Below are positions 34,801-37,800 of a stretch of 64,000 nt of DNA, piece after piece. The notes beneath the pieces are model-generated. The model was not told the origin of the DNA and did not search any database. It saw only the letters and a program-made list of their open reading frames with translations. Source of the DNA: Lamellibrachia satsuma (taxonomy: Eukaryota; Annelida; Polychaeta; Sabellida; Siboglinidae); the NCBI GenBank assembly GCA_033239005.1, contig BSQZ01000001.1:14671000-14734999 (forward strand), read 5' to 3'. Both the position numbers and the translations under genes were made by a program. How positions within the stretch are numbered: the first letter of the stretch is position 1; each line of letters opens with the position of its first letter.

Positions 34801-37800
34801 CTGCCAGCGAGGCAACATTGGTAGCATTGCTGGCTGCGCGGAGTCGCATGCTCTTGAAACACCATGAGAACAATGACAGTGGTGATGGAGTTGATGCTGA
34901 GACCATGTCTAAACTAGTAGCTTACTGCTCAGATCAGGTAAATCTGCATGTGTCAATTGATTTTCTTCTATATCTGTTGATTCACATAATTACATTTCAG
35001 ACGTGTAACTTATGAAATAGAAAAGAATACTCCTATGGGTTATGTTAAAGGCTGCATTAGGTGTTTGCAATCATATATATGTCATCATATGATGCATTCA
35101 ACAAATCTATCATAAAATGGACATAAGATATCCAATTATAATTTTTTTGTATTTAATTTAGTGCTCAACAGATTACTAGGATAGAACAGAATCCATCATA
35201 ATTGATGATTAAGTGAAGTAACAAATAAACATAATTAAAGTACATATTAAAATAAGTGATAGGCCTACATTAACATAATTAAAATACATAGATGTGTTAA
35301 AATAATGTTAATTGCAAATTTGAAATATACCCAGTGATTTGCTATGGACATCATGAAGCATGAGTCTGCCTATTCCGGTTTCTTAGGCACATTCGTCTAT
35401 TGAACGAGCATGTCTGCTTGGTGCGGTTCGCTGCCACATGGTGGAGTCTGATGAGAATGAACAAATGGTGGAGTTGGCCCTGGGTGCAGCCATTACCAGT
35501 GACAAAGAGAAAGGACTCATTCCCTTCTTTGTATATATAATTTGTTTGCTAAATAATTAAGGAGAAAATGATAGATCATTATAATGTTCTACAAAGTATA
35601 ACTATATAATACACATACAAAGTTATGATACATTATTAAATATATAAATTAAATATATAAATACATTTTTTGGACATCTTAAAGAAACTCTTTTTTTAAG
35701 AAAACCTATTGGCCTACTGTGAGATAGGAACCTTTTTATTGTTGACAAACATTTCCCTCTGAGAAGGAAACATTTTTATAAATGGCAATTTAGGTGAAAT
35801 GGACAGGCATGATTTGTTGAGTATTGTATTTTTTTTTCCAGTGTTTGGCTACCCTCGGTACCACCGCTACCTGTGCCTTTGACAAACTGCAGGAGATAGG
35901 ACCCGTGTGTAAGTATCTCATGCGTCATTTATTTCATTATTCTCCAGTTCTGTTTAGGATTAATTATTTTGTTAAGTGTGTTGCATAGTGTCTTGTCTTC
36001 TACACTATTTGTACCTGCATGGTCAATTGTTTATCTCATTTCAGTACGATTGCTCATGATCAGGAAGTGCAGCCTTGTGCTTGTCTCATTTCAGTACATG
36101 ACTGCTAGTAATTTGGTAGTGCGGTCTGTTGCTTCTCTCTTTTCTATACATGACAGCCAATGATCTTTTAGTGCAGTCTGTTGCTTCTCTCATTTCAATA
36201 AATGACTGCCAGTGATCAGGTAGTCCTGTTTGGAGCATGGACTATTAAAAATGAACTACATGTACATGCAATGAGGATGTGAACTGTTGCAGGTGAGAAG
36301 GCAGACATTTGGCTGCACATAGATGCAGCCTATGCTGGCTCTTCCTTTATCTGTCCAGAGTTCCGTCCACTTCTAGATGGAGTTGAGGTATGCTTTTTAT
36401 GTAAATTAGTTATTTCTGCAATTAATATATTTACCAACGCTAATTATCTATCTGGTCCACTCTGTATAAAATAGAATGTTAGATTCTATCCACTCTGCAT
36501 AGAATGTTAGATTCTATCCACTCTGCATAGAATGTAACATTCTGTCCACAGTGCATATGTTAGATTATGTCCACTCTGCTTAGAATGTTAGATTTTGTCC
36601 ACTTTGCATAGAATGTTACATTCTGCCCACTTTGCATAGAATGTTAGATTCTGTCCACTCTGCATAGAATGTTAGATTCTGTCCATTCTGCTTAGAATGT
36701 TAGATACTATGCACTCTGCATAGAATGCTAGATGCACATTGTTATGAAATTGGTTGTAATTAACTTGTTTGAATGTTTGTATTTAAATGAAGCAATGGCA
36801 ACACAATTATGTGAGTATAGTCCGAGAAATGTAGTAGTATATCAGAACTGAGTGTTTGTTGTGTGTTTCTGTCAGTTTGCTCATTCCTTCAACTTCAACC
36901 CTCACAAGTGGCTACTTGTCAACTTTGACTGCTCAGCCATGTGGTATGGTTGTTTATGTTCTACTTGAAGTATTATCTAGTTTTTCTTCTAGTGCTCAAA
37001 CACAACATAGGAAACTAACAAAACTGTCACAACGCTATCAAAGTCTTTGAAATTACTTATTAATACCAGTTAATGACAGTTATTTTCAAGTAGCACCATT
37101 TGCAAAATGATTCATAACTGAGATGACCCCTAAATGGAAGATGCCCCCTAAATAAACAGTTTACTGCTGATGTCATAATACTATGGTAGATGACAGCATA
37201 TTGTCTTTCTTTCATGGATGCATTTATTTGTAAATCCATGATGTATAAATGTGGACTGTTAAGTATTTCATCAGGATTTGTTTATGTTGTGTTGTAACGT
37301 GATTAATGACCTTCATCGCCAGGTTTAAGGACACGACCCACATAGTTGACGCCTTCAATGTTGATCCTCTTTTTCTGAAGCACCAGCATGAAAGCCACAC
37401 CCTTGACTTCAGGGTGAGTGACCTGTGCACTCTTGCAGTGTTTGTCAGACTGTCTCCTCCATGCACTGTCAATTTAATAGGGGCATGTCATCATTTTAGC
37501 TAAATTGTCATTTTAAATAATATATTTTAAGTACAAATCGATTTTAATTTCAGTTATAATTCCCACTGCCAAACAAGTGTTACTTTTTTGTCTAAAAAAT
37601 TATTTATTTATTGTTTGTCTTAATATATTTTAAGTTATGTACATATTGGTAACGTTTGTAAAAAAAATAACTACTTCATTTACAAATGAAGTAGATCATG
37701 TTAAATGTTTTTTTTTATTTAAATGCAATTTATTTTTATTATATTTCCCACTTGTGCCAAACAGCAGTTTTATTTGTCTTCTGTGTTGGTAGCATTTGCA

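What the first reader, a model, noticed from the sequence alone, without database searches (positions are those of the whole stretch)
37323..37413. DDC-like enzyme has Phe in place of the catalytic-loop Tyr: possible aromatic acetaldehyde synthase
Seen: exon 9 reads NVDPLFLKH; codon 37372-37374 is TTT. Known: in AADC family members this loop position is Tyr (Tyr332 in human DDC) and protonates the quinonoid. In plant aromatic amino acid decarboxylases Tyr-to-Phe at this site marks aromatic acetaldehyde synthases that do decarboxylation-deamination. Insect aldehyde synthases use a different switch (the PLP-stacking His to Asn); here that His is kept (DQAHSSIERA). All other visible PLP residues are conserved and the 483-aa frame is intact, so this looks like functional change, not decay. 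Inference: an animal enzyme using the plant-type switch.
Basis: partly seen in the sequence, partly recalled or inferred. Interest (0 to 1): 0.78.

Follow-up and report, generated by a model that had tools for sequence, protein, structure and literature searches.

The report
Tubeworm DOPA decarboxylase lacking catalytic tyrosine
A deep-sea tubeworm carries a recently duplicated copy of the enzyme that normally makes dopamine and serotonin, in which the key catalytic tyrosine has become phenylalanine, a change that turns the same kind of enzyme into an aldehyde-maker in plants, fungi and laboratory mutants but is not known to me in any natural animal enzyme.

Summary
In detail: exon 9 (37323-37413) of an open 12-exon DDC gene (25829-38763, 483 aa) reads NVDPLFLKH, TTT at 37372-37374, residue 332. 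The animal is Lamellibrachia satsuma or a very close relative; a public L. satsuma record also has Phe. Of 149 other listed relatives, 147 have Tyr. The same genome holds a canonical twin (contig C5, 92.5% identical, Tyr332), so this is a recent DNA-level duplicate. Outside the loop both copies changed alike (11 v 12 residues, 5 unresolved); all 8 loop differences are on the window copy; gene-wide dN/dS is 0.23. That argues for altered catalysis, not decay. Tyr-to-Phe at this site turns pig DDC, human HDC and plant decarboxylases into aldehyde-forming enzymes, and natural fungal Phe-type enzymes are such; an aromatic acetaldehyde synthase is the best prediction, unassayed. Beyond the window: Owenia has an independent Phe332 copy, and 8 of 14 loop exons found in fetched parts of a DDC gene cluster (C22, C29) carry Met332, a type shared with Ridgeia. 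Loss of the catalytic Tyr has recurred in annelids. Main doubts: W347L and other loop changes, high synonymous divergence in exon 9, no expression or enzyme data.

The parts
25829..26029 (+). DDC-like gene, exon 1 (start codon)
   Evidence: joined frame without stops, GT donor; homology to DDC
27886..27999 (+). exon 2
   Evidence: AG/GT borders
34242..34355 (+). exon 3
   Evidence: AG/GT borders
34797..34937 (+). exon 4
   Evidence: AG/GT borders
35387..35530 (+). exon 5 (holds His192, Ser193)
   Evidence: AG/GT borders; residues
35842..35908 (+). exon 6 (Thr246)
   Evidence: AG/GT borders
36293..36387 (+). exon 7 (Asp271)
   Evidence: AG/GT borders
36876..36943 (+). exon 8 (PLP lysine Lys303)
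   Evidence: AG/GT borders
37323..37413 (+). exon 9, catalytic loop
   Evidence: AG/GT borders; NVDPLFLKH
37372..37374 (+). TTT = Phe332 in place of the catalytic Tyr; TAT in the C5 twin
37793..37891 (+). exon 10 (Gly352 = human Gly354)
   Evidence: AG/GT borders
37796..37798 (+). TTG = Leu347 where relatives have Trp
38088..38192 (+). exon 11
   Evidence: AG/GT borders
38551..38763 (+). exon 12 and stop codon
28000..34241 (+). intron 2 (6242 bases), holding a minisatellite and an antisense LTR-type retroelement

Best explanation
The gene encodes a PLP enzyme that arose by recent DNA-level duplication of the tubeworm's canonical DOPA/5-HTP decarboxylase (the C5 copy) and has been altered in its catalytic loop. 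It most likely works as an aromatic acetaldehyde synthase. The substrate forms an external aldimine with PLP and loses CO2. The resulting quinonoid is not protonated, because the loop's Tyr-OH is gone, so O2 attacks it and aldehyde and ammonia are released, with H2O2 as in the plant enzymes if the chemistry is the same. Likely substrates are L-DOPA and 5-HTP (DDC-type Gly at human 354). Shown here: gene structure, Phe332, the Tyr twin, loop-restricted change, purifying selection. Inferred: the reaction and the substrates. Speculative: a role in cross-linking tube or cuticle protein, by analogy with insect DOPAL synthase.
For: Gene open: 12 exons, AG/GT borders, 483 aa; Pfam Pyridoxal_deC 515.5 bits. 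Of 134 positions conserved in at least 97% of 145 reference proteins, the window departs at 3 (V195I, Y332F, W347L); the C5 twin at 0. Twin v window: dS 0.151, dN 0.034, ratio 0.23. Of 36 differences, 19 polarise to the window branch, 12 to the C5 branch, 5 are unresolved; 8 of the 19 and none of the 12 lie in codons 320-347 (binomial p 5e-6 for the 8 of 19). [quoted passage not shown] Fungal IasA with Phe329 was assayed as an aldehyde synthase (PMC11046786, passages). [quoted passage not shown] A second annelid, Owenia, has its own duplicate with Phe332 plus S193V; holding both Phe proteins as one clade is rejected (AU p 4e-83).
Against: No assay, transcript or protein data. W347L is not, to my recollection, part of the plant signature, and six further residues of codons 320-347 also changed, so the loop could be impaired rather than retuned. 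Ser193 is kept, unlike in the Owenia and Ridgeia variants. Exon 9 has high synonymous divergence too (7 of 18.2 sites, dS 0.54, against 0.137 outside codons 320-347), so part of the loop signal may be local mutation or mosaic history. The window end branch is longer than the twin's (0.066 v 0.019). Some polarising votes are thin. Without O2 pig Y332F converts PLP to PMP, and tubeworm tissues may be low in O2 (recalled).
Confidence: 0.66

Rival explanations
1. It is still an amine-forming decarboxylase: His192 (kept) or water protonates the quinonoid well enough and Phe332 only slows or fine-tunes the reaction.
For: His192 and Ser193 are both kept; the His has been proposed as proton donor in plant enzymes, and changes at residue 192 give mixed activities (PMC7497351 section 5; PMC6494836 passages).
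Against: The Tyr-to-Phe swap abolished amine formation in pig DDC and is reported to convert HDC and plant enzymes. The unchanged twin can supply the amine-forming activity (inference).
Confidence: 0.13
2. The loop is under relaxed constraint: the copy is redundant and on its way to losing catalysis, or persists as a catalytically weak partner that dimerises with the C5 product.
For: dN in exon 9 (0.104) is close to intron divergence (about 10%); two nearly invariant loop residues are changed; the window end branch is longer than the twin's. Broken copies exist elsewhere in the family in this genome.
Against: Outside the loop the window copy changed no more than the canonical twin (11 v 12, 5 unresolved); no stop, frameshift or splice damage in the model; 131 of 134 conserved sites are kept. 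Decay should not respect the loop border.
Confidence: 0.15
3. TTT is a sequencing or assembly error or a private allele.
For: One base (TAT to TTT) separates the codon from that of the twin.
Against: A public L. satsuma record has Phe332 and differs from the window at the last residue (K v T), so it is not the identical sequence; seven other residues of codons 320-347 changed on the same branch.
Confidence: 0.03
4. The loop changes alter substrate choice or give another PLP reaction (for example decarboxylative transamination) rather than a classic aldehyde synthase.
For: W347L and six other loop changes accompany Phe332; related tubeworm copies carry Met332 with Leu193, and one also Asn192, so the family explores other solutions.
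Against: The pocket residues checked are the usual ones; the closest precedent is oxidative deamination.
Confidence: 0.12

Closest known systems
Animal aromatic-L-amino-acid decarboxylase (DDC/AADC)
   Different: Phe for the catalytic Tyr332, Leu for the conserved loop Trp, other loop changes
Plant aromatic acetaldehyde synthases (Rhodiola 4HPAAS 6eeq, Arabidopsis PAAS 6eei)
   Same: Phe at the loop switch site, His kept (literature)
   Different: 38% and 47% identical over the aligned part of the model; the tubeworm protein lies among animal DDC proteins next to a Tyr332 twin; W347L has no counterpart there that I recall
Insect DOPAL synthases (AMD-r, DHPAAS; 6jrl)
   Same: Animal relatives of DDC; same predicted product from L-DOPA
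   Different: They use Asn192 with Tyr332 kept (PMC10380194 passage); the window has His192, Tyr79-Phe80 and Phe332
Pig DDC Y332F and human HDC Y334F laboratory mutants
   Same: The same substitution in an animal enzyme
   Different: Engineered, single change; the tubeworm protein is natural and has further loop changes

Membership tests
Group II PLP decarboxylases (PF00282) | Pfam profile above gathering score; PLP Lys in HKW; Asp in DAAYAG | tested here: met
   515.5 bits v cut-off 27; K303, D271, H302 kept
Animal aromatic-L-amino-acid decarboxylase, canonical | Catalytic-loop Tyr332 | tested here: not met
   Phe, TTT
Animal aromatic-L-amino-acid decarboxylase, canonical | Placed among animal DDC proteins, DDC-type Gly at human 354 | tested here: met
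   trees (animal proteins only, no outgroup); G352, as in 146 of 149 others
Animal aromatic-L-amino-acid decarboxylase, canonical | Forms the amine | not testable with these tools
   no assay
Aromatic acetaldehyde synthase, Phe type (plant, fungal) | Phe at the loop position with His at 192 | tested here: met
   F332, H192
Aromatic acetaldehyde synthase, Phe type (plant, fungal) | Produces aldehyde, CO2, NH3 and H2O2 with O2 uptake | not testable with these tools
   no assay
Insect DOPAL synthase (DHPAAS) | Asn at 192 | tested here: not met
   His192
Insect DOPAL synthase (DHPAAS) | Phe79-Tyr80 (common, not universal) | tested here: not met
   Tyr79-Phe80

The most novel reading that the evidence does not exclude
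Annelids, vestimentiferan tubeworms above all, have repeatedly removed the catalytic proton donor of DOPA decarboxylase: Phe332 in a fresh duplicate (this window), Phe332 plus S193V in Owenia, and an amplified Met332/Leu193 clade shared by Lamellibrachia and Ridgeia, one copy also carrying the insect-type Asn192. Together these would be an unrecognised radiation of oxygen-using, aldehyde-forming enzymes in gutless tubeworms, perhaps feeding reactive aldehydes into tube or cuticle cross-linking.
Probability: 0.42. Interest if true: 0.86.

Novelty: new variant of a known kind. Interest (0 to 1): 0.73.

Why it matters
It would be the first natural animal enzyme that I know of to use the Tyr-to-Phe switch seen in plants and fungi, caught shortly after duplication with its unchanged twin still in the genome. 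That makes the evolution of the switch directly testable: two enzymes 92.5% identical, with the loop changed in one only. It also shows that automatic names such as 'aromatic-L-amino-acid decarboxylase' can hide a different product (an aldehyde instead of a neurotransmitter), which matters for reading amine signalling from animal genomes.

Tried and rejected
Rejected: pseudogene (open gene; change outside the loop equal in both copies); insect-type switch (His192 kept); shared origin with the Owenia Phe copy (AU p 4e-83); simple base error (public record with Phe332).

Led nowhere: a protein search aimed at Phe-bearing loops gave 7 candidates, none scored, so how widespread Phe332 is among animals remains unsurveyed; only the best 120 rows of 7,994 and of 7,998 could be seen. 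The genome-wide search for more Met-type loop exons did not complete. Paper searches for 'dopa decarboxylase' with 'tubeworm' and 'aromatic aldehyde synthase' with 'tyrosine' and 'invertebrate' found none; 'amino acid decarboxylase' with 'siboglinid' gave one paper, on vent endosymbionts, seen in the listing only. Searches showed no animal Phe-type enzyme in the titles and abstract starts listed (one search listed 12 of 2,250 papers); papers of those lists that I did not open could still mention one. The library holds open-licence papers only. The structure model used P0001, which lacks exons 1-2, and its loop (model residues 254-279) is below pLDDT 50, so it says nothing about the Phe side chain.

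Full report
Observation. The gene runs from 25829 to 38763 on the + strand in 12 exons with AG/GT borders and encodes 483 aa. Exon 9 is 37323-37413 and codon 37372-37374 is TTT, residue 332, which is also the mammalian number used in the papers cited below. The finding is correct as stated, including the kept His192.

Which animal. The best database match, P0001, is a Lamellibrachia satsuma protein with 100% identity over 78% of the query. Its first 31 residues are identical to the + strand translation of 33136-33228, inside the antisense retroelement of intron 2, so the public record is a truncated gene model; over exons 3-12, 377 of 378 residues agree and the last differs (T v K). The window therefore comes from L. 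satsuma or a very close relative, and a sequence that is not identical to the window's also has Phe332. The genome held is 735 Mb in 279 contigs, with the window at C1:14671000-14734999.

How rare is it. In the 150 different proteins listed by two searches (the best 120 rows each of 7,994 and 7,998 scored), leaving out P0001, residue 332 is Tyr in 147 of 149, Phe in one (Owenia fusiformis P0066) and Met in one (Ridgeia piscesae P0091). Of 134 positions at least 97% conserved in 145 reference proteins, the window departs at three: V195I, Y332F, W347L. Two of the three are among the 11 conserved loop positions (p 0.018). Trp347 is Trp in 148 of 149.

A canonical twin. A gene model on contig C5 (13229784-13250033, - strand) has the same 12 exon lengths, AG/GT borders, no stops, Tyr332 (TAT) and Trp347, and departs at none of the 134 conserved sites. 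Window and twin differ at 36 of 483 residues (92.5% identical); the six introns measured align at 89-91% over their best local stretch; and DNA similarity, with gaps, runs from about 100 bases before the start codon to about 270 bases after the stop. So the window copy is a recent DNA-level duplicate. Intron 2 is 6,242 bases in the window and about 1,750 in the twin, which fits a later retroelement insertion.

Selection. Pairwise Nei-Gojobori: dS 0.151, dN 0.034, ratio 0.23. I polarised the 36 differences by majority among 15 outgroup proteins: 19 on the window branch, 12 on the C5 branch, 5 unresolved. All 8 differences in codons 320-347 fall on the window branch (8 of 19, binomial p 5e-6); outside, the counts are 11 and 12, with 5 unresolved. 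Some votes are thin (A341T rests on 1 of 15). The window end branch is longer in the tree (0.066 v 0.019). Exon 9 also has a high synonymous divergence (7 of 18.2 sites), so part of the loop signal may be mutational or mosaic. Even so, a decaying gene should not be as well kept as its twin outside one loop.

Chemistry from the literature. Review PMC7497351 (passages and section 5): pig DDC Y332F makes no amine but DOPAL and ammonia with O2, and without O2 PLP goes to PMP; the same Tyr/Phe switch separates plant decarboxylases from aldehyde synthases, which also give H2O2; a Psilocybe enzyme with Phe is a DOPAL synthase. PMC11308512 (passages): the switch works both ways in plant enzymes and is reported for human HDC. 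PMC11046786 (passages): fungal IasA with Phe329 was assayed as an aldehyde synthase. PMC10380194 (passages): in insects residue 332 is Tyr in all AASs and AAADs studied so far, and Asn192 marks the AASs. [quoted passage not shown] PMC6494836 (passages): Gly353 of the insect enzyme is reported to raise specificity for L-DOPA; the window has Gly at what I take to be the matching place. PMC3026038 (passages): insect DOPAL is thought to cross-link protein of flexible cuticle, the basis for my speculation on function.

Other annelids. The Owenia Phe332 copy is sister to an Owenia Tyr332 copy (support 100), 83.6% identical, and also has S193V, P330A and H335N. On the 63-row tree the states of residue 332 need three changes, and one clade for the two Phe proteins is rejected (p-AU 4e-83). 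So Phe332 arose at least twice among the proteins seen.

A Met-type clade. The genome has a large cluster of DDC-like genes on C22 (3.23-3.73 Mb) with relatives on C29. I held only part of it: 3.63-3.74 Mb of C22 whole, smaller pieces elsewhere, and the C29 stretches. There, 14 loop exons of this group were found: Tyr332 in 6, Met332 in 8 (FSVKEIMFSH and close variants). Two further fetched stretches (L034, L043) gave none. Three Met copies could be modelled with all 12 exons open (C22 3476602-3488043, C22 from about 3711695, C29 from about 5721965), with pairwise dN/dS 0.45-0.52, a weaker constraint than for the window pair, and with borders chosen among stop-free pieces. Two have His192-Leu193 and one Asn192-Leu193; one has Ala next to or at the place of Thr246 (GTAATC for GTTATC). 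One Met copy on C29 and one Tyr copy on C22 look broken; the other copies were not modelled in full, apart from a Tyr copy near C22:3664 for which exons 2-12 were open. Ridgeia's Met protein (Leu193) groups with the three Met copies at 100/99 support, and window plus C5 at 100/99. The relay residues 192-193-332 among 149 others are His-Ser-Tyr 144, His-Val-Phe 1 (Owenia), His-Leu-Met 1 (Ridgeia), Asn-Ser-Tyr 1 (an ant, P0123), His-Ala-Tyr 1, His-Cys-Tyr 1.

Fold. The P0001 model (mean pLDDT 82.6, loop below 50) matches pig and human DDC (9dui 47.3, 8or9 47.1) ahead of plant enzymes (6eei 44.3, 6eeq 43.2) and insect DOPAL synthase (6jrl 39.2). This fits DDC descent and says nothing about the reaction.

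Verdict. It works, most likely, like an aromatic acetaldehyde synthase. By descent it is an animal DDC that fails the defining catalytic Tyr. Filing it as an aldehyde synthase needs an assay. I saw no report of a natural animal Phe332 enzyme in the searches named, mostly listings, in an open-licence library only.

Noticed in passing
L014, L016, L031, L033, L037, L038, L039, L041 (contigs C22 and C29): Amplified DDC-like genes in which the catalytic Tyr is Met (FSVKEIMFSH and variants), the type of Ridgeia P0091; three copies modelled as open genes with Leu193, one of them with the insect-type Asn192; at least one copy (L014) looks broken.
   Followed up: partly
C22 3.23-3.73 Mb (pieces in L022-L044): A roughly 0.5 Mb cluster with about a dozen or more DDC-like copies on both strands, an expansion of the family in this tubeworm.
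   Followed up: partly
P0066 (Owenia fusiformis): An independent annelid DDC duplicate with Phe332 plus S193V, P330A and H335N; its sister copy P0018 keeps Tyr332.
   Followed up: partly
27985-29128 and 33789-34023: Minisatellite (46-55 base units) in intron 2 whose unit resembles the end of exon 2 plus its splice donor; TGGGTGAGTC occurs 14 times here counting the true donor, and 16 times around intron 2 of the C5 twin. Decoy splice donors might affect splicing.
   Followed up: partly
29545-33586: Antisense LTR-type retroelement in intron 2 (RT and integrase domains; 'Gypsy-type' is my recollection), lying within the minisatellite; the public L. satsuma protein P0001 begins inside it, so that model is truncated.
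   Followed up: partly
37796-37798: Residue 347 (human 349), Trp in 148 of 149 relatives, is Leu here and Arg in the Ridgeia Met protein; I found no described role for this Trp (PMC10382914 had no hit for it).
   Followed up: no
37323-37413: Exon 9 has unusually high synonymous divergence from the C5 twin (7 of 18.2 sites).
   Followed up: no
60894-63269: 791-aa open frame on the + strand with no Pfam match.
   Followed up: no
47318-48883: 521-aa open frame without Pfam match, possibly part of a DNA transposon (my guess).
   Followed up: no
1685-2119 (+) and 6969-7304 (-): Pieces of an O-fucosyltransferase gene (O-FucT) and of a gene with a helicase C-terminal domain lie upstream.
   Followed up: no
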